Origin: an uncultured Bacteroidales bacterium
Lineage (GTDB): Bacteria; Bacteroidota; Bacteroidia; Bacteroidales; UBA3663
DNA: 64,000 bases
Assembly (NCBI GenBank): GCA_905235375.1
Contig: CAJOLH010000001.1
Location: forward strand, 1 to 64,000
Direction: 5' to 3'
Shown: positions 5,138 to 58,588 of the stretch, one piece after another
Numbering within the stretch: the first letter of the stretch is position 1
Layout of the letters: each line of letters opens with the position of its first letter
Position numbers and translations under genes: made by a program
Notes under the pieces: generated by a model
What the model was told of the DNA's origin: nothing
Database searches by the model: none
The model's input: only the letters and a program-made list of their open reading frames with translations

Positions 5138-5951
5138 TATTTATCTTATTCATAGCTTCGGTCTCTTCGGCACGATAGGCACGCATACGCGACATCATCT
5201 CGTCGAAGTTCACTTCGGCAGCATCGAACTCGGGACCATCGACACAAACGAATTTGGTCTTTCCACCAACAGTGACACGACAAGCGCCACACATACCGGT
5301 ACCATCAACCATAATAGTGTTGAGGCTGACGATGGTCGGCACATCATATTTCTTGGTAAGCAGAGCAACAAACTTCATCATAATGGTGGGACCGATGCAG
5401 ACACACTTATCCACGTGTTCACGCAGGATGACCTGTTCGACGCCTACAGTGATTACGCCCTTCTGTCCGTATGAACCGTCGTCGGTCATGATAAGGACTT
5501 CATCGGAGTTGGCACGCATCTCGTCTTCAAGAATAATCAAGTCCTTCGTGCGGGCTGCCAAAACAACGATGACCTTATTGCCTGCTTCGTGCATAGCTTT
5601 TACGATGGGAAGAAGTGGAGCCACTCCGACACCACCACCGCAACAGATTACGGTGCCATACTTGCGGATGTCGGTGGCATGACCGAGAGGACCGACTACA
5701 TCAGCCAAACAGTCACCTACATTGAGCGCATTGATGCGGGTAGAACTTGCACCTACAGCCTGCACAACGAGGGTGATGGTGCCTTTCTCTACATCGGCAT
5801 CTGCAATGGTAAGAGGAATTCTTTCGCCTTTCTCATCAAGACGGACAATAACAAAATGTCCGGCTTTACGACTTTGGGCAATCAGCGGAGCTTCCACCTC
5901 GAAACAGGCCACCTTCTCGCTGAACATTTTCTTGCTTACGATCTTGAACAT
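5130..5951 (-). CDS. sulfide/dihydroorotate dehydrogenase-like FAD/NAD-binding protein (NfnA-like)
   Basis: 273 aa; CGGGVGVAPLLPIVKA and a C-terminal Cys-rich FeS motif (GTGMCGACRVTVGGKTKFVCVDGPEFD); overlaps the NfnB-like start by 8 nt. Confidence 0.88.
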   Translation of the reverse strand: MFKIVSKKMFSEKVACFEVEAPLIAQSRKAGHFVIVRLDEKGERIPLTIADADVEKGTITLVVQAVGASSTRINALNVGDCLADVVGPLGHATDIRKYGTVICCGGGVGVAPLLPIVKAMHEAGNKVIVVLAARTKDLIILEDEMRANSDEVLIMTDDGSYGQKGVITVGVEQVILREHVDKCVCIGPTIMMKFVALLTKKYDVPTIVSLNTIMVDGTGMCGACRVTVGGKTKFVCVDGPEFDAAEVNFDEMMSRMRAYRAEETEAMNKINIG

Positions 5952-6101
5952 TATAAATTATCAATTAACAAATAACAATTAAAAGGTCTTTGGTCGTTAC
6001 AAATAACTATTACATAACCATATTTGGCTGCAAAATTACTATAATTTTCCATAAAATCAAAAATATTTCAGGAAAATTACTTTTTATTCACAAAAAATGT
6101 G

Positions 6102-18621: not shown

Positions 18622-20598
18622 ATGATCAAAGACATTCTCAAGCAATATTGGGGCTATGATGATTTCAGACCATTGCAGTCTGAAATCATCATGTCTGTAT
18701 TGGAGGGTAATGACACATTAGGATTGATGCCCACTGGAGGAGGCAAGAGCATCACGTTTCAGGTCCCTGCTATTGCACTTGGCGGATTGACGCTCGTCGT
18801 AACACCGCTGATCTCGTTGATGAAGGACCAGTGCGACCATCTTACCGAAAGAGGCATTCAGGCTGCAGCAGTCTTTATGGGAATGTCTCAGCAGGAGATA
18901 CTCGAGACCTTCGAAAGGGTGATTTCCGAAGACTATCGTTTCCTGTATATTTCTCCCGAACGTCTTGAGACACCACTTTTCCAGGCGAAGCTGCAATACA
19001 TGGATGTACGTCTGTTAGTCGTTGACGAAGCTCATTGTATCTCTCAATGGGGTTATGATTTCCGACCACCTTATCTCAAGATTGCCAATCTTCGAAAGAT
19101 GATCTACGAGGTCAGGGCTCAAAACAAGTCACCATGGGTACCGCAGAAACCTTTTGCGGATTTAGCTGCAGTGACTACCTATCACGTTCCCTGCCTCGCT
19201 CTGACCGCTACAGCTACAAAAGAAGTAATAGCAGACATCCAGGAGAAACTGCATTTTCGACCTTCATCAAAAGTCCTGAAGACATCCTTCGAACGTCCTA
19301 ACCTGACCTATTCCGTTATTTATGCCGAAGACAAGTTGGGCAATATCGTACGTATGCTTAGTGGAGCGAATGAAGGATGTTCGGCAATCATCTATTTGCG
19401 GAGCCGCATCAAGACCGCAGAGATAGCAGAATATTTGAACCGAAACGGCATTCCTGCCGACTATTATCATGCCGGGTTAAGTGCAGAAAGCAAGGCAAAG
19501 CGGCAAGAGGCATGGATGGCAGGAAATCCTTCGGTCATTGTTGCCACCAATGCCTTTGGAATGGGTATCGACAAGGCAAATGTACGCAAGGTGATTCATC
19601 TCGACCTTCCTCCTTCGATTGAGGAATATTTTCAGGAAGCAGGACGCGCAGGACGTGACGGGTTACCAGCTGAAGCAACGCTTATCGTCTCGGAATATGA
19701 CAAATACAAGCTTCGCAAACACTTGGTTGAATCCTATCCAGAGCGCGACTTCATCCGTCACGTCTATGGTCGGCTTGCCTCATTCTTTCAGATTGCCATT
19801 GCTGCCGGACTTTACAATATGTTCGAGTTCGACATTTATCGATTCTGTTCAGCCTATCGTCTGTCATCCATTCAGGTGCATTATGCACTGAAGTTACTCG
19901 ATCAGGCTGAATACATCAAATACATTGAAGACCCGGACCGACATTCGCGATTGATGTTTGTCACTTCGCGTGAGTCATTATATCATCTTAATCAATTCGA
20001 CAACGAATGTCAGCGCATCATCCAAACCCTGCTCCGTCTCTATACCGGTCTGTTTGCCGACTATGTATATATCTCCGAAGAGCAAATCATGAAAGTCACC
20101 GGACTTGACCGGAACACACTCTATGAGAAACTGTTGCTCCTCTCACGTTTTCATGTGCTTCATTATATTCCTGCACGTCAGAAGCCTGCAATCTTATATC
20201 TGACGCCTCGGCTGGAAGATGAAGAGATTAAGATCCCACGTTCTGTCTATGAAGATCGTCTTGCACGTCAGGAAGGACGTATGGAGGCAATGATCAAATA
20301 CGTCGATAACTACAGGGAATGTCGGTTGGTGCAGTTACTGAAGTATTTCGGGGAAGACCTGGATCATCGATGTGGAAAATGCGATGTCTGCCTGAGTGAA
20401 AACCGAAACGGAAACATACTAGAAGAATACGACATGATACGTCAGCTTATCATTGACAAACTAAAGGCGAACGAATGTTTGCTTGTTCAACAGTTGCTGA
20501 TGCAGATTGATATGAATCCCAAGAGGGTCGGTGAAGTCCTTCATCACATGGTCGAAAATGAAGAACTTAGACTTTCGCATGGGATGCTTTCTTTGTAA
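18622..20598 (+). CDS. recQ: RecQ family ATP-dependent DNA helicase
   Basis: FRPLQSEII, MPTGGGKSITFQVPA, VDEAHCISQWGYDFRPPYL, VATNAFGMGIDKANVRKVIH, QEAGRAGRDG. Confidence 0.95.
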   Translation: MIKDILKQYWGYDDFRPLQSEIIMSVLEGNDTLGLMPTGGGKSITFQVPAIALGGLTLVVTPLISLMKDQCDHLTERGIQAAAVFMGMSQQEILETFERVISEDYRFLYISPERLETPLFQAKLQYMDVRLLVVDEAHCISQWGYDFRPPYLKIANLRKMIYEVRAQNKSPWVPQKPFADLAAVTTYHVPCLALTATATKEVIADIQEKLHFRPSSKVLKTSFERPNLTYSVIYAEDKLGNIVRMLSGANEGCSAIIYLRSRIKTAEIAEYLNRNGIPADYYHAGLSAESKAKRQEAWMAGNPSVIVATNAFGMGIDKANVRKVIHLDLPPSIEEYFQEAGRAGRDGLPAEATLIVSEYDKYKLRKHLVESYPERDFIRHVYGRLASFFQIAIAAGLYNMFEFDIYRFCSAYRLSSIQVHYALKLLDQAEYIKYIEDPDRHSRLMFVTSRESLYHLNQFDNECQRIIQTLLRLYTGLFADYVYISEEQIMKVTGLDRNTLYEKLLLLSRFHVLHYIPARQKPAILYLTPRLEDEEIKIPRSVYEDRLARQEGRMEAMIKYVDNYRECRLVQLLKYFGEDLDHRCGKCDVCLSENRNGNILEEYDMIRQLIIDKLKANECLLVQQLLMQIDMNPKRVGEVLHHMVENEELRLSHGMLSL

Positions 20599-20657
20599 GG
20601 GATTTGTAGGGACTTTTAGGGATATTTAGGGATTAGAAGGGATATTTAGGGACGTTA
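20598..20657. repeat. 6 x 10-bp degenerate array, core AGGGA + 5 variable nt
   Basis: AGGGA at 20598, 20608, 20618, 20628, 20638 and 20648; starts on the last base of the recQ stop codon. Confidence 0.9.
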
Positions 20658-23040: not shown

Positions 23041-26000
23041 ATGAAACCTGACAGAACCCTCTTGCTCGCATGGGGACAGATTGACGCTCAGCAACTCGCC
23101 TTCCCCGAAGCTCAAGGTTGGGGACGATATGCTATGGGAGCTCGCAAATCAGACCATCCCACCGTTTATCATGTAACAAACCTGAACGATTCGGGAACAG
23201 GCAGCCTGCGCGATGCAGTAAGCCAGCCGAATCGCATCGTCGTGTTTGACGTGGGAGGCGTTATCAAGTTATCAAGCCGCATTGTCTTCTCAAATAATCT
23301 TTATGTAGCAGGACAGACGGCACTCGGCGAAGGTGTAACCATCTATGGCGATGGCGTGTCGTTTTCGGGCGCGTCGAACATCATCTGCCGTTATCTTCGA
23401 GTACGCATGGGACATAACGGTTCGAGCGGCAAGGATTGTGCAGGTGTCGCCAACGGCACAAATATGATCTTCGACCATTGCTCCTTCTCCTGGGGCTTGG
23501 ATGAGACTTTCTCCATCAATGGCTTTGGTGCAGCATGGAACATCACTCTCCAGAACTGCATCTTCGGTCAAGGACTAATGACCCACTCAGCGGGCGGATT
23601 GATGCAAGCCGATTCAATTACGCTCTACCGTAACCTTTACATTGACAATTCTACCCGCAACAATAAGGTGAAGGGTACTAATCAATATGCAAACAATGTG
23701 GTGTATAATTGGTCCAACGGTTGCTACATCATGGGTGGCGATTCGGAAGGTTCGTCCTATGTCAACATCGAATCGAACCTATTCATCAACGGCCCTTCGG
23801 GTGGTGGCAACTGCTTTGGAGGTGCAAACCAGGATTTCCATTGCTATGGCGTAGATAACTGGCAGGATTCCAACCGTGATGGTGTGCTCAACCCGACAGA
23901 AGTGACCAACTATTCAGCTTCGGATCATCGCTCGACCGATCCTTACGATTATCCTGCTCTTGAACTATATCCTGGCAATGAGCTCATTGCAAAAAACATC
24001 CCAACTGTGGGTGCTTGCCTTCCTTATCGTGACCAGAGCGACTGCTACCTTATCGATGAGCTGATGTCATTCGGTCTCATGGGTGCGCTCATTTCGAACG
24101 AAGAGACGTTGCCCATCGGTGCACCTGACACCTGGGACTGGTTTGCAGGCACGAAACCTACAGATACAGACAACGACGGGATGCCCGACGCATGGGAGAT
24201 TGCCAATGGAACCGATCCAAATGTCAACGATGCCACAGCGAAAGCAGCCAACGGATATTTAAATATCGAAAACTATATCAATTCGATTACGGTTGACGAT
24301 AGGCAATACTTCCTGCGCAGGCCTATTACACTGAACGCGACTTCTACCACAACCACTCTGACACTCACTTGGCGTGACTATACCTACGATGAGGAAGGTT
24401 TTGCCATCGAAATGAAGAAAGATGACGCTTGGACGGAGGTAGGACGCACCCAACCCGATGCCACCACTTTCACGCTCACAGCGCTTGAACCTGGCACTGG
24501 TTACGAAGTGCGCGTCCGTGCTTTCGGCTTATATGATGGCGCTGAGCAGTATTCGGATTTTACTACGGGGACCTATAAGACGAAGCCTGTTGAAGTGGGT
24601 ATCATCGACATCGACACGTATACGCCCGATGTGACCAATAGAGTGGAGGGTGTAGATGGCAAGAAACTGCTGCTCCATACTGACGATACGCTTGACTTTA
24701 ACCTTACTTCAAACATAGCCCCCGAAAGTGTTGTAGCCACAGGTAAGGGAACGATAACCGTTTCGGGCAATGGAGAAATAGGCGGAGAAGGTACTTCGCT
24801 TAACAAAGGAGATGCAGGCACACTGATACTTTCGAACAAGAACTCTTATACGGGTGCCACCGTACTTCATGAAGGTGTCCTTTCGTTCAATTCCATTGCC
24901 AACGGCGGTGAGGCATCTTCAATCGGCAAAAGCCAGGAGTTTGCACAAAACTGGATTATGGATGGTGGCACTTATCGCTACACAGGATTGAACAATGCCA
25001 CCAATCGCTCAGCTCGACTCACCAATCCCACTACCTTGGAGATTGAATCTGCTACACTCACCATGAACGGCAGCATCGAGGGTTCAGGCGATAGCCAGGA
25101 CTTCATCCTTGACGGCAATGGGCAACTCAATGTGGGCAGCACATCTTTCTTCAAATACACAGGCACAACCACCATCAAAGGCGGCACGCTCTATCTTTCG
25201 ACCACCGACATAGCAAAAGCAGGTATCGGAAGTTCATCAAAACTCATTCTTGCAGGCGGCACATTGAAGACAAAAGGTGAGTCGTCGAACTACGAGACCT
25301 ACTCCTTCCCCATCGAAGTACGAGAAAACACCTACAGCATCTTTGCTCCCAATAGAAACTGCTACATGAACAACACCTTGTCAGGAGCTGGCACACTGGA
25401 AGTACATATTCCTTATCTTCGCGAATATTTCAATTTCAAGACCAATGACTTTACAGGACGTTTGGTTGCCAATGGTGTCAGTTCCGACTCCGATGGCGCC
25501 TTGATGCTCAAGGAGAGCAGCTACAACATTCCGACTACCATCGTCACTCTCAAGGGCAATGCCAAACTCTGCTGCTGGTCCACCACTTCCGACAACTACT
25601 TGGGAGGATTGTCGGGCGATGAAGGAACCTATCTGATGTCCACCTCCAAGCAGACCGATGGAACCACAAGCACATGGACCATCGGCTCAGCAAATTCAGA
25701 CGAAACCTTTGCGGGCATCATCAACAACCGTTGCTGCGCCGCAAACCATTATGCCAAGACGAACAACATCAACAAGGTTGGAACAGGCACTTGGCGACTT
25801 ACCGGCAAAAATGTCTATGCTGGCACAACCAATGTGAAGGAAGGTACATTGGCTGTAAATGGTCAGCACATCGACGATACAAACCAATATGCAAGATCGC
25901 ATGCAACGGGTGCTACCGAATATAACATCTTCGCAGAAGCTACCCTTTGCGGCACAGGTTCCATCACCAAAACCTCCACCATCAATGTCCAAACGGGCGG

Positions 26001-27003
26001 CACACTTCGCGCTGGCGATGACTTGATAGCCAAACAAACCTTTGACATCAGCGGGGCCACAACTACCCTGAAGTCCGGGTCACTGTTCTGCATACCTATT
26101 GCCTACGAAAACGGTGTGGCTCGCAGCAACAATTTCAAGGTGGGAACAATGAATATAGAAGCAGGTGCCATTCTCCAACTCGACATGCAGGTTAGCAGTG
26201 CAGGAATGCCCAACGATACGAAGTTTGTAGCTTTTACGGGCATTTCCTCCATCAATGGCACATTTGATTCCATCTATCCTGCCACACCAAGCGAAACACA
26301 GGAATGGGACCTTTCGGAACTCTATACCGAAGGCATCATTTATGTGCGCGAACAAGGTTATTCGCAACACCAACCCACTTATACAGAAGAGCAGCTCTTC
26401 GGTTCGACTGGTTTGGTAGCTGAAGATGGTTATTATTATTTCACTGCAGAAAACATCGAAACCACCCAGCAATATATCGACAACGGTGTAATCCGCTTTG
26501 ATGATGCTGGCAAAGCATCGGTGGCCGATAACTACACAACCGACCTACAGACAGGAGCAATCAAGCTTAGCAAAGCAGCCGAACTGACATTTGCCTTGGA
26601 TGGCGCAGTAAACAGCTTAAAGTTGGCTCTCTATCGCGCATCGGGCACCGATTGGGGATATGTCTATGGCAGTTATGATGCAGAAGACTGGACATTGCTC
26701 GCATCCTTGACCTCTGACCTTACTACACGACAGACGAATTACATCGATTTGACCACCGAAAAGATGTATAAGTCCGATTACAGATACATTCGTATTACCC
26801 AACCCAATGGTGCTTCCCCAACCTATCTTTGTGGCATAGCTTTGACTTATATGCAGAAGCATATCCCCGGGGAAGGTATCCATTCGATTCAGATTGACCC
26901 AAACACAAATCACAGTTACGACCTGCAGGGAAGAGTTGTGAGCGAGGGACAGAAGCCCTTGATAGTTATTAAGGATGGTCGAACTGTGGTGGAGATTGAG
27001 TGA
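23041..27003 (+). CDS. pectate lyase-like (PL1) protein with fibronectin III and autotransporter-associated beta-strand repeats
   Basis: AFPEAQGWGRYAMGARKSDHPTVYHVTNLNDSGTGSLRDAV..., FnIII near TTTLTLTWRDYTYDEEGF, PATR-like WRLTGKNVYAGTTNVKEGTLAVNG. Confidence 0.8.
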   Translation: MKPDRTLLLAWGQIDAQQLAFPEAQGWGRYAMGARKSDHPTVYHVTNLNDSGTGSLRDAVSQPNRIVVFDVGGVIKLSSRIVFSNNLYVAGQTALGEGVTIYGDGVSFSGASNIICRYLRVRMGHNGSSGKDCAGVANGTNMIFDHCSFSWGLDETFSINGFGAAWNITLQNCIFGQGLMTHSAGGLMQADSITLYRNLYIDNSTRNNKVKGTNQYANNVVYNWSNGCYIMGGDSEGSSYVNIESNLFINGPSGGGNCFGGANQDFHCYGVDNWQDSNRDGVLNPTEVTNYSASDHRSTDPYDYPALELYPGNELIAKNIPTVGACLPYRDQSDCYLIDELMSFGLMGALISNEETLPIGAPDTWDWFAGTKPTDTDNDGMPDAWEIANGTDPNVNDATAKAANGYLNIENYINSITVDDRQYFLRRPITLNATSTTTTLTLTWRDYTYDEEGFAIEMKKDDAWTEVGRTQPDATTFTLTALEPGTGYEVRVRAFGLYDGAEQYSDFTTGTYKTKPVEVGIIDIDTYTPDVTNRVEGVDGKKLLLHTDDTLDFNLTSNIAPESVVATGKGTITVSGNGEIGGEGTSLNKGDAGTLILSNKNSYTGATVLHEGVLSFNSIANGGEASSIGKSQEFAQNWIMDGGTYRYTGLNNATNRSARLTNPTTLEIESATLTMNGSIEGSGDSQDFILDGNGQLNVGSTSFFKYTGTTTIKGGTLYLSTTDIAKAGIGSSSKLILAGGTLKTKGESSNYETYSFPIEVRENTYSIFAPNRNCYMNNTLSGAGTLEVHIPYLREYFNFKTNDFTGRLVANGVSSDSDGALMLKESSYNIPTTIVTLKGNAKLCCWSTTSDNYLGGLSGDEGTYLMSTSKQTDGTTSTWTIGSANSDETFAGIINNRCCAANHYAKTNNINKVGTGTWRLTGKNVYAGTTNVKEGTLAVNGQHIDDTNQYARSHATGATEYNIFAEATLCGTGSITKTSTINVQTGGTLRAGDDLIAKQTFDISGATTTLKSGSLFCIPIAYENGVARSNNFKVGTMNIEAGAILQLDMQVSSAGMPNDTKFVAFTGISSINGTFDSIYPATPSETQEWDLSELYTEGIIYVREQGYSQHQPTYTEEQLFGSTGLVAEDGYYYFTAENIETTQQYIDNGVIRFDDAGKASVADNYTTDLQTGAIKLSKAAELTFALDGAVNSLKLALYRASGTDWGYVYGSYDAEDWTLLASLTSDLTTRQTNYIDLTTEKMYKSDYRYIRITQPNGASPTYLCGIALTYMQKHIPGEGIHSIQIDPNTNHSYDLQGRVVSEGQKPLIVIKDGRTVVEIE

Positions 27004-27004
27004 T

Positions 27005-27094
27005 TATAGCGGGGATAGGATTTATAGCTACTATAGCATTTATAGTTTCTATAGATTTTATAGTCCTTATAGCTTTTATAGTTACTATAGTTTT
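27005..27094. repeat. 10 x 9-bp degenerate array, core TATAG + 4 variable nt
   Basis: cores at 27005, 27014 (GATAG), 27023, 27032, 27041, 27050, 27059, 27068, 27077, 27086: exact 9-bp period. Confidence 0.92.
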
Positions 27095-27133
27095 TAATAA
27101 GACCAAAATAAAAACCAAAATAAAACTAAAAAA

Positions 27134-29500
27134 ATGAAGAAATCATTGTTACTACGGAAAGGAGCTTTCCTAACGATGGTGGCGATGCCGTTGATTCTGC
27201 TGACCTCATGTCAGGAGGACTTGGCAGATAGCGACCATTACAAGGCACCCGACTTCCTTGTGGGCAATGCCATCGAGGTTTTGCAGAATGATGGAAACTA
27301 TTCCACTTTCCTGCGAGGCATCGAACTGATTGGCTATAACGATGTCGTCAGTACGCAGTTGCTCACGGTCCTTGCTCCCACCGACGAAGCGTTCCAGCGT
27401 TTTCTGTCGGCCCGAGGCTATTCGTCGATTGATGACCTTTATACCGCCGATCCTGTATTCGTCAAAGAGTTGATTACCTATCACCTCATTTATTTCGCTA
27501 TGGATTGGGACAAGATGGTCAATTTCCGTCCCACAGATGGAGACGGAGCCACCGAGGCTGACAAAACTGTTAACGCAGGAATGTATAACCGCTTCCGCAC
27601 ACGTTGCCAAAAGGATATGACAACCGAATATAACCCGGCAGCCTCTGTTCGAGATAATGTGCAAGTTGTACATTACGACCGTTATCTGACTGTCTTCAGC
27701 GAGAAGCTGTTTTCTACCTTGGGACTCAATGCCGCTACCAACTATAATTATTTCTTCCCAGGCAGCACTTGGAATCCCAATCATCTCAGCAATGGTTTCA
27801 ACGTGATGAATGCTGCTGTGCTCGACACGGAGGCTGTTGTGACCGATAATGGCTATCTCTACCACATCGACCAGGTGATTGAGCCCATCAGTACCATCTA
27901 CGACGAATTGTCGAGTCGTGCGGACTATCAGATGTTCAGCAAACTCTTCAACCAATACAAATATTATTCACAGGACATCACCGAATCTGAGAAGCGAGGC
28001 TTCCCCGTCTATAGTACACATTTCAATTCGTTACCCGATATTGCCAACGAGTGGGCATCATCATCATTCCTCGACTTCACACGCAATAGCTATGTTTCGT
28101 ACAACATCATAGCACCCACCGATGCTGCCATGAACAAGATGTTCAGCGAATACTGGGAACCTGGTTGCGGCTATACTTCGGTCGAAACGCTTAATCCACT
28201 CATTCAGCTGATTCTGCTCAACGAGTGTCTGATGGTAAGCGATGTCAATGGCGACGGCAGCAGGTATCAGGATTATATGTGTTACCCCGACTTCATCGAT
28301 AACGGACGTGCACTTTCGGAAATGGGTACGCTTATCAACTTGCCATCTTCGGAATTTGACAACCGACTTGTCTGCAACAATGGCATCATTTTCGGAACCA
28401 CCACAATGTCGGTTCCAGGTGTGATGGGAAGTGCCATAGGTCCTGCCTTCAAGGATGTGCGTTACCTTAACTATCTATATACGCTCTATGGTTCGAGCTT
28501 AATAGGCAACTATTCGAGCAATGCCACCAGCCATGTTGCACTCATCCCTGACACTGCACAATATCGTGCCGAACGGATGCGCCTCTTCCGCGAAACTGTG
28601 GATGGTGTTTCGGAATATACCCTCCAGCAGTGGAATGACGAGGCTGGTGACTACACCAATATGGGAAGTGGCCTGATGCGCAACATTGTCAACATGAACA
28701 CGGCTGATGAAGTGAGCGAATTGCCTACCACGGGCACAGCAGTCATCGAAACCAACGTGTCGTATAACTACTGGTTTGTGCGAGATGGCAAGATAACTAC
28801 CAATGCCCTCTTCAACCAGCAACTCAACCCGACTTTCACCGACGAGATCTGGTATCCATTCCGTGAAATCCAGCGTGGAGGTGGTCAGACATGGAGCAAC
28901 GGACGTTCCTACGCCTATAGCTATCCTGGCATCTACCAACCCGTAACGGCAGAAAGCCTTGAGACAGAACTTTCGCAAAATAACGACCGCAATTATCCGT
29001 ACTACTGCTTTGCCCAGCTGCTTCGTCTCTCTGGCTTAGCATCCGATGGTGCTTTCGTTACGACGGGCGCCAATACCGTCCGCATTGAGCAGGACATGAA
29101 TGATAATCGATTCATCGCATTCGTTCCCACCAACGATGCCATCCGTGAGAACCTCAAGTCGCTTCCCGGATGTTCCAACCTCAACATCGATCAGAACACC
29201 TATGCAATCTCCGGGCGCGCCACACAAGCCCAGCTGGCAGCCTATCTGCTGAGCTACTTCGTTGTGCGCGACCGCAACGCGTTCACCGCTTATCCCTACG
29301 TAGGGTCGTCCTGCAAGGGTCAATTCAAAACGGGTGGCACATTTGATTTACAGATTACCGACGATGGTTTGTCACTCTCCATCAACGCTGTCGGCGATGC
29401 TGCCGAAGGTGTGAGTGTTCCCGTGGTCGATAAATACCATTACCTGCCATTCGCATTCAGCGACGGTGCATTCCAGCTCGTTGATGGAGTGCTGAAATAG
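27134..29500 (+). CDS. fasciclin (FAS1) domain lipoprotein
   Basis: lipobox LLTSCQ; TQLLTVLAPTDEAFQRFL, YNIIAPTDAAMNKMF, FIAFVPTNDAIRENL. Confidence 0.85.
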   Translation: MKKSLLLRKGAFLTMVAMPLILLTSCQEDLADSDHYKAPDFLVGNAIEVLQNDGNYSTFLRGIELIGYNDVVSTQLLTVLAPTDEAFQRFLSARGYSSIDDLYTADPVFVKELITYHLIYFAMDWDKMVNFRPTDGDGATEADKTVNAGMYNRFRTRCQKDMTTEYNPAASVRDNVQVVHYDRYLTVFSEKLFSTLGLNAATNYNYFFPGSTWNPNHLSNGFNVMNAAVLDTEAVVTDNGYLYHIDQVIEPISTIYDELSSRADYQMFSKLFNQYKYYSQDITESEKRGFPVYSTHFNSLPDIANEWASSSFLDFTRNSYVSYNIIAPTDAAMNKMFSEYWEPGCGYTSVETLNPLIQLILLNECLMVSDVNGDGSRYQDYMCYPDFIDNGRALSEMGTLINLPSSEFDNRLVCNNGIIFGTTTMSVPGVMGSAIGPAFKDVRYLNYLYTLYGSSLIGNYSSNATSHVALIPDTAQYRAERMRLFRETVDGVSEYTLQQWNDEAGDYTNMGSGLMRNIVNMNTADEVSELPTTGTAVIETNVSYNYWFVRDGKITTNALFNQQLNPTFTDEIWYPFREIQRGGGQTWSNGRSYAYSYPGIYQPVTAESLETELSQNNDRNYPYYCFAQLLRLSGLASDGAFVTTGANTVRIEQDMNDNRFIAFVPTNDAIRENLKSLPGCSNLNIDQNTYAISGRATQAQLAAYLLSYFVVRDRNAFTAYPYVGSSCKGQFKTGGTFDLQITDDGLSLSINAVGDAAEGVSVPVVDKYHYLPFAFSDGAFQLVDGVLK

Positions 29501-29524
29501 CATTAATCGTTGATTGTAAAAGCT

Positions 29525-32500
29525 ATGAAAGTTATGAATAAACTCAAGACTATATTGATTACCATCCTCTCGCTCATGACTTCGATGGTTATAGCGCAGC
29601 AGGCAAAGACTCTGACCGGTGTGGTGGTCGATTACTTCAATGAGCCCATACCTGGCGCCAACATTGTTGTTTCGAACCAACAGAACCGTGCCCTGAAGGG
29701 AACCGTCACAGATATCGACGGCAACTTCGTGCTGACGATGCCTCCCGGCGAAAAATACAACATCCAGATTTCCTACATCGGCATGAAGACCCAACGTATC
29801 GAATACAAGGGTCAAACTACTTTGAAAGTCAAGATGTCGGAAGACAGCCGAATGCTTGCCGGTGCCGAAGTTACCGCACAGCGCATCGAACGCTCCGAAC
29901 TGGGTGTCTCCTTCCGGGAACAGACCTCAGCTACACAGAAAATCTCCATGGTCGAAATCACCGAAGTTGCTCCAGTGGCTTCCATCGAAGAAGCCCTGCA
30001 GGGACAGGCTGCCGGTCTCGACATCGTGCTTGGAGGTGACCCCGGCGCAAAATCCTCCATCCGTATCCGTGGTACCAGTACGCTCTCGTCGAATGCCGAA
30101 CCTCTTGTCGTCATCGACGGTATTCCTACTTCGACAAGCTTCGGCGACGACTTTGACTTCTCGAATGCCAACGAAGATGACTTCGGTGCTCTTCTGAACA
30201 TTTCGCCATCTGACATCGAAAGCATCGAGGTACTCAAGGATGCAGCTTCAACCGCCATCTACGGCACATCGGGTGCCAATGGTGTGCTCCTCATCACCAC
30301 CAAGCAAGGCAAGACGGGAAAGACCAACTTCAGTTTCACTTCAAAGTTCTCCATCAAGGAGGAACCCGACCCCATTCCTCTGCTCAATGCTTCGCAGTAT
30401 ATAGCCATGATACAGGATGCCGTCTGGAATGCTGCTAACGCCAACGGACTCGGCAACTCCTCAGCCCTGCTCGACCTGCTCTACAACCGAGACGAACTCC
30501 TGCAGCGTCAGTCTCTCTCTGAGTTCAAGTATTATCGCGAATATGCAACGGACACCGATTGGCTCGAAACCGTCAAGCAGAACGCCTGGCAGTGGGACAA
30601 CTCATTCTCAGTGAGCGGTGGCGGCGACAAAGCTACCTATATCTTCTCGCTTGGCTACCTCGATGATGTCGGTACGACCATCGGCACAGAGCAGAAACGT
30701 CTGACTGCCAAGACCCGCGTGACCTACAAGTTCTCAGACAAGTTCCGTGTCTATACCGACTTCAACTTCGTCAATACCGACAAGTATGCCAACTATACGG
30801 ACAACGATGACAACTTCTCGGGAGTACGTGCCATGGCACAAGCCAAGATGCCTAACGAAAGTCCATATCTGATGAATGACTTCGGACCCACTGGCAGCTA
30901 CTTCCAACCGTGGGACGGATGTTTCCAAGGCACCTTCACCAGCGCAGGTAACTACAACCCGCTTGCGATGGCAAAAGAAAGCTACTACAACACCAACGTT
31001 CGCCAAGAGAAGATGACCATCGACTGGGAATGGCGTCCCTATAACTGGCTTCGCTACGAAGGATGGGTCAGCATGGACATGAAGGCACAGGTCGTAAAGT
31101 CGTTCCTGCCTCAGGTTGCTACCGGTGTTCTTTGGACCAACACCTACGCAAACCGTTCAGCTGAAAAGACTACCGACAATTTCCTGCTTCAGACCCAGAA
31201 CAAGATTCAGGTCATCAAGACCTTTGCCGAGAAACACAGCATCGTGGCAACGGCACTTGTAAAGACCTCACATTCGAGCTCAAGTTCGTCGGTCAACGAG
31301 ACCTACGCCAATGTTTCGGACAACCTCTCCGACCCAGTAGTGGGAAGTATCGTGGCTGGAGCTTCGAGTGGAGAAAGCCAGACGCGCAAGGTGCAGTTCA
31401 CCGAATCATTAGCTTATACCTACGACGGACGCTATTCGCTCAATGCGAACTTCAACACCGAAGGAAACTCTGCGATGGGTAAGAACCAGCGTTTCGCCAC
31501 CTTCCCATCGATGGGTGTGGCCTGGAATATCTCCGAAGAACATTGGTTCGACAACTACAAACGTGTCTTCACACAAGGCAAGATCCGTTATTCGCTCGGT
31601 TGGTCGGGCACGGCTCCATCGAGTGGCTATGTATATATGGGTGCCTATTCGAGCCTTGGAAATTATATGGACATCAAGGCCATCTATCCCAACCGTATGC
31701 AGCTCGACAAACTGAAGTGGGAGTCGAAGCGCGAATGGGACGTGGGTGTCGATCTGCGTTTCTTCGACCGCTATGCCCTCACTTTCGACTATTACGACAA
31801 CTACGTGTCAGACTGTTTGACCAAGAAGTACAGCATTCCTTCCACCACAGGCTATGCCCAGCTTGCATACTCCAATTCGGGTGAGGTATCGAACAAGGGA
31901 TGGGAGCTTCGCTTTGATCTCGACCTTGTCAAGACACAGAATTGGAAGTTCACGCTCAACTTCAATTGCGCGCGTAATATAAATAAGGTGGAAGTCGTTC
32001 CTGACAACTACAACGAGAACGTCAAGGTTGGCAATGGTTCGGGTAACTACAACACCTTTACGGTTGCCGGCGACCCCATCGGTTCGTTCTACGGCTTCCG
32101 TTACCTTGGCGTATATCAGAATATCGAGGATACCTATGCACGCGATGCCGCTGGCAACATCATGACCGACTTCAACGGCGACCGTGTGACGATGATCAAC
32201 TACCGCGAGCGCGTCTATCCTGGCGATGCCAAGTATGAGGACATCAACCACGATGGTGTCATCGATGCCAACGACATCGTATATCTCGGCAACTCCTACC
32301 CGACCATTACCGGCGGCGGAGGCTTCTCGCTCAAATACGGCAATACGAAAAACAACTTCGGTATGTTCAGCCTCAATGTCCTACTGCATGGTCGCTACGG
32401 ACAGAAAGTCATCAATGCAGCCCGTATGAATCTTGAGAACATGCACGGCACCAACAACCAATCGACTGCCGTCCTCAACCGCTGGCGCAAGGAAGGTGAT

Positions 32501-32815
32501 GACACCGACATTCCGCGTGCCCTCTACGGCATGGGTTACAACTATCTGCCATCCGACCGATTTGTGGAGGATGCCTCCTACCTACGAGTAAAGAGCATCT
32601 CACTTTCGTGGGCATTACCCAAGAAGTGGCTCGCGCATATCGGCTTCAACACCGCATCCATCTATGTGACCGGCTACGACCTCTTCACCTTCACCAGTTA
32701 TTCGGGACAGAATCCAGAGGTTAGTCTTCCCAGCAAAGCTTCCGACCTCGTGAAGGACAGCTCTACAACGCCTGTTTCAAAACGTTTCGCATGTGGTATT
32801 AACTTGAATTTCTGA
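29525..32815 (+). CDS. SusC/RagA family TonB-linked outer membrane protein
   Basis: [78 protein letters not shown]. Confidence 0.95.
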   Translation: [1096 protein letters not shown]

Positions 32816-32819
32816 AAAT

Positions 32820-34526
32820 ATGAGAAAGTATATATTCAAACCTATAGTTGCTATAATATCCATAGTTACTATATTAACAGCCACCAGCTGCAACGACTGG
32901 CTTGACCTCCTGCCTAACAACGAGCAGGTGACCGACAACTATTGGCAAACCAAGGAGGATGTCGAGTCGGTGGTAGCTTCGGGTTATTACTATATGCGCA
33001 ATGCCGTGCCGCAGATGCTCCTCTGGGGTGAGTTGCGCGGCGGTACGCTCTTCAACAACTCCACCACCGACGAAGCCGGCAAGATACAGGACTTCGATGC
33101 CGTGGAAGGCAACTCGCAGGTAAAGTATGCGACGTTCTATCAGATCATCAATATGGCCAATTCGGTTCTGATGTATGCCCCCACAGTGCAAGAGAAGGAT
33201 AACACCTATTATACCTCTGTACTCAACAGTCATCTCTGTGAAGCCTACTTCCAGCGAGCCTTCGCTTACTCAATCCTTGTCAAGAACTTCAAGGAAGTGC
33301 CTCTCATCCTCGAAGCCTACGTCAACGACGATGCAGAATTCAATCTTCCGAAGGCAAGCGAAACACAGATCATCGAGCAAATCAAGGCGGATTGTCTTGC
33401 AGCACTTGCAACAGGAGCTGCGAAGTCCAATTACGAAAGCGAATGGGAAACAAAGGGACGTGCCACCAAGTGGGCTCTCTATGCACTCCTTGCGGACATC
33501 ACGCTCTGGAACCACGAATTCGACCAGTGCATCCAGTATTGCAACGAACTCATCGAAGCCACCGATGCCCTTCGTCCCGTCTTCATCAGTGAGATGAACA
33601 ACTGGTATTCGATCTTTAATCCAGGCAATTCGAACGAGAGTATCATGGAACTCAACTGGAACTATGCCACTGAGGGTTCGAACAATAACTTCTACAGCCG
33701 TTTTGCCTGGGGCAACCTGATCAGCTCTGCAACAGGTGCCTATAACATTTCGCCCACAGCCATCGAAAAGATGCGGCAAGAAGCCATCACTGCATTGGCC
33801 AATCATCCGGAGCTTACCTACAACGACCATGTTGGGCGTTCCATCTTCTGCACCTGGGTGCCCGGTACAAGCACCGATGCTCCTTCACGCTACACAACCA
33901 GCCAAAACTTCTTCGTATGGAAATACTACGGTCAGGAACTTGCCAACATCGAAAGCATTCGCCTTTCAACAGGCAACGATGCCAACTTCATCCTTTACCG
34001 CATGGCGGACGTTTATCTGATGAAGGCAGAAGCTTTGGTCATGAAGGGACAGGCATCGTGGCGAGCTGCCATCGAGCTTATCAACAAAGTGCGCCAGCGC
34101 GCAGGGCTCGACAATTTCCTCGACCTTTCCTCATCGACCTCTGAAAGTGAAATTGAGGCGCTCGATGAACTGACGCTACTCAATGAGGTTATCGACCAAC
34201 GTGAGATGGAATTTGTGGGCGAGGCCAAACGCTGGTACGACCTGCTGCGCATGGCCCGCTACGACATTGATTTTGCCCCCACGCAAACCGTGGAGGACGC
34301 CGAGGGCATAGCCTACGGATCCTACAAGACAGTCAGCGGACAAGCCGTCTTCGGCTACAAGCAGCGCGTCATTTCGACCATTTGCGAGTACAACACCCAG
34401 ATTTCTGCTATGCAGCTGCAGTCCGTACTCCAAAACAGTTGGGCCTGGTACCTACCCATTCCTGTGGGGGACATCGAAACCAACGACAATCTCAAACAGA
34501 ATCCCTACTACGCCACTACGAAATAA
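32820..34526 (+). CDS. RagB/SusD family nutrient uptake lipoprotein
   Basis: TATSCNDWLDLLPNNEQVTDNYW; REMEFVGEAKRWYDLLRMARYD. Confidence 0.93.
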   Translation: MRKYIFKPIVAIISIVTILTATSCNDWLDLLPNNEQVTDNYWQTKEDVESVVASGYYYMRNAVPQMLLWGELRGGTLFNNSTTDEAGKIQDFDAVEGNSQVKYATFYQIINMANSVLMYAPTVQEKDNTYYTSVLNSHLCEAYFQRAFAYSILVKNFKEVPLILEAYVNDDAEFNLPKASETQIIEQIKADCLAALATGAAKSNYESEWETKGRATKWALYALLADITLWNHEFDQCIQYCNELIEATDALRPVFISEMNNWYSIFNPGNSNESIMELNWNYATEGSNNNFYSRFAWGNLISSATGAYNISPTAIEKMRQEAITALANHPELTYNDHVGRSIFCTWVPGTSTDAPSRYTTSQNFFVWKYYGQELANIESIRLSTGNDANFILYRMADVYLMKAEALVMKGQASWRAAIELINKVRQRAGLDNFLDLSSSTSESEIEALDELTLLNEVIDQREMEFVGEAKRWYDLLRMARYDIDFAPTQTVEDAEGIAYGSYKTVSGQAVFGYKQRVISTICEYNTQISAMQLQSVLQNSWAWYLPIPVGDIETNDNLKQNPYYATTK

Positions 34527-56513: not shown

Positions 56514-56641
56514 TGCGTTTGGTTTAGCTTCTTCGCTGTTTGCATTGAACATTTATCTCCATTGTTAAATTAAAAAAGATGTATTAACAATGCCCCAGGG
56601 TGACTGTCGAAGAGATAGGCACCCTGGGATTTATTTTAAGT

Positions 56642-56677
56642 TTTCGTAGATTTCGTTGTTTTCGTAGTTTTCGGAAT
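56642..56677. repeat. 4 x 9-bp array, core TTTCG + 4 variable nt
   Basis: TTTCG at 56642, 56651, 56660 and 56669. Confidence 0.85.
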
Positions 56678-56718
56678 CTTAAATACGATGGGGGTTATTC
56701 CGAAAATGCCCGAATAAG

Positions 56719-58092: not shown

Positions 58093-58108
58093 ATATTTTC
58101 GAAGCAAA

Positions 58109-58588
58109 CATTCTGTCGGCCGTCATAGTGCTTTATCCGACAGAAGCAAGCATTCTGTCGCCCGTCATAGTGCTTTATCCGAGAGGAAGAAGCATTCTGT
58201 CGGCCGTTATAGTGCTTTATCCGACAGGATGAAGCATTCTGTCGGCCGTCATAGTGCTTTATCCGAGAGGAAGAAGCATTCTGTCGGCCGTTATAGTGCT
58301 TTATCCGACAGAAGGAAGCATTCTGTCGGCCGTCACAGTGCTTTATCCGAGAGGAAGAAGCATTCTGTCGCCCGTCATAGTGCTTTATCCGACAGGAAGA
58401 AGCATTCTGTCGGCCGTCATAGTGCTTTATCCGAGAGGAGGAAGCATTCTGTCGCCCGTCATAGTGCTTTATCCGACAGGAGGAAGCTTTCTGTCGGCCG
58501 TCATAGTGCTTTATCCGACAGGAAGAAGCATTCTGTCGCCCGTCATAGTGCTTTATCCGACAGGAAGAAACATTCTGTCGCGCGACAG
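58109..58588. repeat. 11 indel-free copies of a 42-bp tandem repeat plus a collapsed terminal unit
   Basis: unit CATTCTGTCGGCCGTCATAGTGCTTTATCCGACAGGAAGAAG starts every 42 bp from 58109 to 58529; partial unit from 58571. Confidence 0.98.

What the first reader, a model, noticed from the sequence alone, without database searches (positions are those of the whole stretch)
27005..27094. Ten-unit TATAG-N4 array at exact 9-bp period between the PL1 and fasciclin genes
tatagcggg|gataggatt|tatagctac|tatagcatt|tatagtttc|tatagattt|tatagtcct|tatagcttt|tatagttac|tatagtttt. Nine cores are perfect and one differs by one base; filler is variable. It begins 2 bp after the upstream stop codon and ends about 40 bp before the next ATG, so it fills the intergenic spacer of the operon. 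It could be a spacer or binding array, or the footprint of an undescribed 9-nt slippage or templated-insertion process.
Basis: partly seen in the sequence, partly recalled or inferred. Interest (0 to 1): 0.6.

Follow-up and report, generated by a model that had tools for sequence, protein, structure and literature searches.

The report
Dispersed 9-bp palindromic-core DNA arrays
The ten-unit array is real and is one of many: this uncultured gut Bacteroidales and most of its sister species scatter short arrays of the self-complementary word CTATAG, repeated exactly every 9 bases, into gaps between genes and tolerant parts of genes, and these come and go between species while the six-letter word itself is unusually well preserved, for a reason not yet known.

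Summary
The array at 27004-27094 is real (0 in 100 shuffles) and not peculiar to this operon. The unit is better written (C/T)TATAG+N3: a palindromic hexamer, CTATAG, plus three free bases. The genome has 16 such sites; ten of 14 congeners have them too (1-219 matches), four have none. Among palindromic hexamers, only a 3-bp gap gives regular arrays. A sister family, TCTAGA+N3, occurs in the same genus. Arrays sit just after stop codons between co-directional or convergent genes and avoid divergent promoters. They also lie in frame inside coding sequence (the SusD signal peptide at 32842-32874; a protein linker). At orthologous sites they are present, absent, or replaced by another array family; the array in question is absent from two of three close relatives. 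In arrays shared by two species, cores differ at 2.6% of positions and spacers at 19%. No hairpin covariation, gene-class preference or RAYT transposase link was found. Best reading: a dispersed, fast-turnover short-tandem-repeat family, like the heptamer repeats of Nostoc and Xanthomonas, at functionally tolerant sites, with a core held constant by an unidentified sequence-specific factor. Probably not a regulator of this operon. New variant of a known kind.

The parts
27004..27094 (+). Ten-unit array, (C/T)TATAG+N3, 9-bp period; unit 2 has core GGATAG
27096..27133 (+). A-rich leader before the fasciclin gene start, itself weakly periodic (ACCAAAATAAAA); not part of the array
23041..27003 (+). 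Upstream gene, 1320 aa, PATR, TSP3 and fn3 domains; stop codon 1 bp before the first TATAG
27134..29500 (+). Downstream gene, 788 aa, fasciclin-domain protein
29510..32815 (+). SusC-like TonB-dependent receptor gene of the same cluster
32842..32874 (+). Second, four-unit CTATAG-N3 array, inside the SusD coding sequence, reading PIVAIISIVTIL just before the lipobox-like TATSC; the same place in three relatives also carries CTATAG-type units
32820..34526 (+). SusD-like gene (568 aa) whose signal peptide contains the second array

Best explanation
The array is one copy of a dispersed, rapidly turning-over family of very short tandem repeats (unit = palindromic hexamer CTATAG + 3 free bases). SHOWN: it occurs at many unrelated loci; copies are present, absent or differ in unit number between close species; they sit where sequence is tolerated (3' side of genes, tight operon junctions, signal peptides, linkers); within an array spacers resemble each other more than spacers of other arrays; cores are far more conserved than spacers. 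INFERRED: arrays grow and shrink by direct duplication or deletion of 9-bp units (slippage or unequal exchange); the core is kept by something that reads the DNA hexamer itself, most likely a small dimeric DNA-binding or DNA-processing protein acting on tandem sites 9 bp apart, because self-complementarity as such is not what is conserved. The array is probably not a regulatory part of the PL/fasciclin/SusCD operon.
For: Genome-wide: 43 matches at 16 sites in this genome, 0 for the reversed control; 0-219 per congener, controls 0-2. Regular triples of palindromic hexamers occur at gap 3 (and its 9-bp multiple, 12) and almost nowhere else among gaps 0-12; a second core, TCTAGA, gives 23-83 matches per genome in six species of the genus. 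The spacer between the same two genes lacks the array in G003 (93% identical protein) and G004 (87%), and has an unrelated 8-unit array in G006 (87%). Of G006 arrays with mapped orthologous gaps, 12 of 21 are also seen in G004, 4 of 15 in G000, 3 of 21 in G003. In shared G004/G006 arrays cores differ at 7/268 sites and spacers at 20/105, Fisher P 3e-7. Within-array spacer identity is 0.53-0.63 for neighbours against 0.35-0.43 between arrays in G006 and G014. Between divergent genes: 5 of 137 arrays against 73 of 632 ordinary gaps, P 0.004. The same tolerant gaps carry other array families in relatives, 4/15 against 19/262 in G000, P 0.027. In-frame coding copies, including a linker where a sister species has a different 9-bp array and another has none. 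Flanking genes are diverse: riboflavin, Bat, ABC transporter, pectin degradation.
Against: No protein that reads CTATAG has been identified. Unit turnover with homogenisation could exaggerate the core/spacer contrast, and arrays were found by their cores in G006 (ascertainment), with well-aligned pairs chosen by eye; the unfiltered set, which includes poor alignments, gives 9.6% against 27%. In this genome neighbouring spacers are hardly more alike than between arrays (0.35 against 0.32). CTATAG outside arrays is only mildly under-represented in coding DNA (observed/expected 0.68). All congeners are draft genomes.
Confidence: 0.6

Rival explanations
1. Cooperative operator: each CTATAG binds a small dimer (as MetJ or other ribbon-helix-helix proteins bind tandem short sites), and the array is selected for transcription control, roadblocking or chromosome organisation.
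For: Fixed 9-bp centre spacing, palindromic core, slow core evolution and free spacers fit tandem dimers. A second core, TCTAGA, with the same 6+3 layout could be the site of a paralogue.
Against: Arrays avoid divergent promoter regions, lie after stop codons and inside signal peptides and linkers, flank unrelated genes, and are missing at orthologous sites of close species.
Confidence: 0.2
2. RNA or cruciform hairpin element: palindromic cores pair along the array to form an intercistronic hairpin that affects mRNA stability or termination, as REP elements can.
For: The window array folds at -24.3 kcal/mol, z -3.0; 34 arrays average z -4.4 against dinucleotide shuffles. Other array families at the same gaps are inverted pairs.
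Against: With cores kept and spacers shuffled, the mean z is +0.5: spacers are not shaped for pairing. Symmetric spacers are not complementary beyond other pairs in most sets. Double core changes that restore the palindrome are not enriched: 2 seen, 3.6 expected for the outer pair.
Confidence: 0.12
3. Purely neutral slippage of chance seeds at unconstrained sites, with no core-specific factor.
For: Copy-number change, within-array spacer similarity, many other short-period array families in the same genomes, sites tolerant of different families.
Against: Does not explain the same hexamer at dozens of independent loci and in other genera, nor cores much more conserved than spacers in the same units.
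Confidence: 0.2
4. A mobile element of the REPIN or MITE type moved by a RAYT or other transposase.
For: Presence/absence at orthologous sites; REP-like location; some sharing of two- and three-spacer words between arrays in G014 (P 0.004-0.006).
Against: Y1 transposase family PF01797 is not found in four array-bearing genomes (G000, G003, G004, G006) and present in the array-free G005. No conserved ends or target duplication were evident in the seven alignments viewed. No sharing beyond chance in G006 or G000.
Confidence: 0.1

Closest known systems
Dispersed heptamer repeats GGGAATC / GGGGA(C/T)T of Xanthomonas and Nostoc (Rehm et al. 2015, PMC4692102), and by my recollection the cyanobacterial STRR repeats
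   Same: Genome-wide short tandem arrays, variable unit number, between aligned genes near stop codons, under-represented between divergent genes, no functional gene class.
   Different: Here the unit is 9 bp, a palindromic hexamer with three nearly free bases; not G-rich; far more presence/absence turnover at orthologous sites (83% of Xcc repeats were shared with Xac).
REP / BIME / REPIN elements
   Same: Palindromic, repeated, 3' of genes and between co-transcribed or convergent genes (location rule from general knowledge).
   Different: REPs are longer imperfect palindromes tied to RAYT transposases; here a 6-bp core in tandem and no RAYT correlation.
Rickettsia palindromic elements (from general knowledge)
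   Same: Dispersed palindromic DNA also found in frame inside protein genes.
   Different: RPEs are single elements of roughly 100 bp or more, not 9-bp tandem arrays.
BrickBuilt minisatellite/MITE of Porphyromonas gingivalis (PMC4596501)
   Same: Tandem array family dispersed intergenically in a Bacteroidales.
   Different: 23-nt units with leader and tail inverted-repeat ends; always intergenic.
MetJ met-box type tandem operators (from general knowledge)
   Same: Short palindromic sites in tandem at fixed short spacing.
   Different: MetJ sites are promoter-located, in a regulon, with a known protein; none of these is shown here.

Membership tests
Dispersed short tandem repeats (STRR / heptamer type) | Same short unit in tandem at many unrelated loci of a genome | tested here: met
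   16 sites in G000, many more in G006 and G014
Dispersed short tandem repeats (STRR / heptamer type) | Mostly between co-directional genes, rare between divergent genes | tested here: met
   108 co-directional, 24 convergent, 5 divergent, 38 overlapping an open reading frame
Dispersed short tandem repeats (STRR / heptamer type) | Seven-base unit as in the described families | tested here: not met
   Period 9, core hexamer plus three variable bases; so it works like these repeats but is not a member of a described heptamer family
REP / REPIN | Linked RAYT (Y1) transposase | tested here: not met
   PF01797 does not track arrays
REP / REPIN | Conserved imperfect hairpin of about 20-40 nt | tested here: not met
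   No covariation; spacers free
MITE | Conserved terminal inverted repeats and target-site duplication | tested here: inconclusive
   None evident in seven filled/empty alignments viewed; not searched exhaustively
MetJ-type tandem operator | Cognate binding protein | not testable with these tools
   No candidate identified
MetJ-type tandem operator | Location in promoter regions of a regulon | tested here: not met
   Divergent gaps depleted, genes unrelated
Phase-variable simple sequence repeat | Unit number changes that switch a reading frame or promoter | tested here: inconclusive
   Unit number changes between species, but the 9-bp unit keeps frame; no strain data
Known structured RNA (Rfam) | Match to an Rfam family | tested here: not met
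   No match at 20-36 kb

The most novel reading that the evidence does not exclude
A hexamer-specific factor creates or multiplies these arrays: a minimal kind of spreading DNA whose only conserved part is a 6-bp palindrome at a fixed 9-bp step, with sister families (CTATAG, TCTAGA) serving different versions of the factor, re-colonising the same tolerant sites and even writing signal peptides and linkers.
Probability: 0.25. Interest if true: 0.8.

Novelty: new variant of a known kind. Interest (0 to 1): 0.52.

Why it matters
It shows a class of bacterial repeats in which six bases stay constant while everything else, including presence, is in flux, in uncultured ruminant-gut bacteria. If a protein reads the hexamer, this is either an undescribed genome-organising system or a minimal selfish repeat; if not, it is a test case for how slippage can hold a core constant. 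It also shows DNA repeats supplying signal-peptide and linker sequence. Cultured carriers exist (Prevotella lacticifex, Prevotella sp. tf2-5), so the question is testable.

Tried and rejected
An operon-specific regulator: rejected, since the array is absent from two orthologous operons and present at unrelated ones. RNA-sense directionality: in G000 the coding strand favours TTATAG over CTATAA, but the genus and wider sets lean the other way. Hairpin selection: no covariation. RAYT mobility: no correlation. Strong avoidance of CTATAG outside arrays: only mild. Rfam: nothing. Papers: no relevant text hit for the repeat strings or encoded peptides, nor a description in Prevotella or rumen genomes. 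IMG/VR gave 119 stretches, not pursued. A second class with GTC/GAC spacers in Cloacimonadota, Nitrospirae, Planctomycetes and others may or may not be the same family; not resolved.

Full report
OBSERVATION. The array is as described. Ten units run from 27004 to 27094 at exact 9-bp period, starting 1 bp after TGA (27001-27003) and ending 39 bp before the ATG at 27134. Chance is excluded: 16 near-matches to a three-unit pattern against 0 in 100 shuffles. The conserved part is six bases, (C/T)TATAG. Over all arrays collected, 525 of 701 inner cores read exactly CTATAG, which is its own reverse complement.

DISTRIBUTION. In this genome (G000) the three-unit pattern has 43 matches at 16 sites and none for the reversed control. 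Pairs of CTATAG within 30 bp are mostly spaced 3 or 12 bp. In the genus, ten of 14 other species have matches, from 1 to 219 per genome, and four have none. In a 393-genome sample of the order the strict pattern is found in only seven genomes: three of this genus, three of one other genus and one more. A scan of GTDB genomes stopped at its limit with 117 stretches, mostly ruminant-gut Prevotella-like MAGs and a few cultured Prevotella. Two congeners have contig lengths equal to public records: G006 contig 65 (69,890 bp) and JAFZTS010000012.1; G004 contig 116 (40,054 bp) and JAFYZW010000124.1, both water-buffalo foregut Bacteroidales MAGs.

ARCHITECTURE. Testing all 64 palindromic hexamers at gaps 0-12 in 0.94 Mb of genus sequence and 0.86 Mb of other sequence, regular triples occur at gap 3 (48 and 76 sites) and at gap 12, its 9-bp multiple; three stray sites fall at other gaps. 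CTATAG dominates (the loci were mostly chosen for it), but TCTAGA+N3 is a second, unselected family with 23-83 matches in six species of the genus. Other short-period families (7, 8, 9, 10, 11 bp) also occur.

LOCATION. With a simple ORF caller of my own, arrays of four or more units lie between co-directional genes (108), convergent genes (24) and rarely divergent genes (5); 38 overlap an open reading frame and 10 are at contig edges. Median distance is 10.5 bp after a stop codon and 27 bp before a start codon. Divergent gaps are depleted against ordinary 40-300 bp gaps (P 0.004). Genes flanking G000 arrays include riboflavin synthesis, Bat aerotolerance, an ABC transporter and pectin enzymes: no functional class.

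CODING COPIES. The second window array (32842-32874) lies in the SusD gene and encodes PIVAIISIVTIL of the signal peptide. In a G000 protein the linker carries a CTATAG array; G003 and G011 also carry CTATAG arrays at the matching gene, G006 has a different 9-bp array (ACTCCGAAT) in the same linker, and G004 has a short linker without an array. Because 9 is a multiple of 3 the frame is kept. The Ile codon in these arrays is ATA, only 13% of Ile codons in G000, in line with DNA-level origin, although detection by CTATAG makes this partly circular.

ORTHOLOGOUS SITES. Between the same two genes as in the window, G003 and G004 have no array; G006 has eight units with unrelated spacers. For G006 arrays with mapped gaps, an array is seen in 12 of 21 in G004, 4 of 15 in G000 and 3 of 21 in G003. 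In one tight operon junction G004 and G003 have only a few bases between stop and start where G006 carries five units. In ten mapped gap comparisons a relative carries a different array family instead, including TCTAGA+N3 and 10-bp inverted pairs; in G000 this is 4/15 against 19/262 ordinary gaps (P 0.027). Such gaps look tolerant of inserts rather than in need of CTATAG.

CORE CONSTRAINT. In ten well-aligned G004/G006 arrays, chosen by eye, cores differ at 7/268 positions and spacers at 20/105 (P 3e-7); the unfiltered set gives 38/396 and 42/154. Spacers of neighbouring units are alike (0.53-0.63) compared with other arrays (0.35-0.43) in G006 and G014, but hardly so in G000. Each species has its own common spacers: TCA and TAA in G006; AAA, AAG and ATG in G014. 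So units appear to be duplicated directly, then spacers drift while cores stay. Plain slippage predicts equal drift.

STRUCTURE TESTS. Arrays fold better than dinucleotide shuffles (mean z -4.4), but not better than arrays with cores kept and spacers shuffled (mean z +0.5). Double changes that keep the palindrome are not enriched at the outer pair, the only pair with enough variation. The conserved thing is the sequence, not self-pairing.

MOBILITY TEST. The Y1 transposase family is not found in four array-bearing genomes and present in an array-free one. Two- and three-spacer words are shared between G014 arrays more than by chance (P 0.006 and 0.004), but not in G006 or G000.

COMPARISON. 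The nearest described kind is the dispersed heptamer repeats of Xanthomonas and Nostoc, with the same placement rules and unknown function (PMC4692102). The present family differs in unit length, palindromic core with free spacers, and much faster turnover. No paper held describes it.

VERDICT. A real, genome-wide and clade-variable repeat family. The given array is one tolerated copy, probably without a role in its operon. What keeps the hexamer constant is the open question.

Noticed in passing
window 20592-20652; L034 3148-3290, L445 3628-3781, L451 1493-1660: 10-bp-period arrays (TTAAGGGATA), in several loci as an inverted pair around a short centre that in some copies contains ACGATACCTTCGCCTGT; a related GGGAGTTAAC family stands at orthologous gaps in G004.
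   Followed up: partly
genus-wide; e.g. L031 17073-17131: Sister array family TCTAGA+N3 with the same 9-bp layout, 23-83 strict matches in six species of the genus, 0-2 in the rest.
   Followed up: partly
L060, L085, L086, L093, L094, L103, L111, L116, L163: CTATAG-like arrays whose spacers are almost only GTC or GAC, mostly in non-Bacteroidales MAGs, some in frame in proteins (e.g. just before a KTGDL.RW motif in L093 and L163).
   Followed up: no
window 56634-56681 and L043 2330-2375, 2495-2540: 9-bp arrays of the form TTTTCGTNG, present at more than one place in the genome.
   Followed up: no
window 58101-58580: 42-bp tandem repeat, 11.4 copies, 92% match.
   Followed up: no
window 5944-5987; L030, L033, L042, L045: 7-bp AATTAAC-type arrays in intergenic DNA.
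   Followed up: no
L338 2410-2524 (G006) and L417 (G004): A probable lipoprotein signal peptide made of two abutting array types: CTCAAACYC units giving LLKLLKPFKP, then CTATAG units giving SIVPIVTIVTIA.
   Followed up: partly
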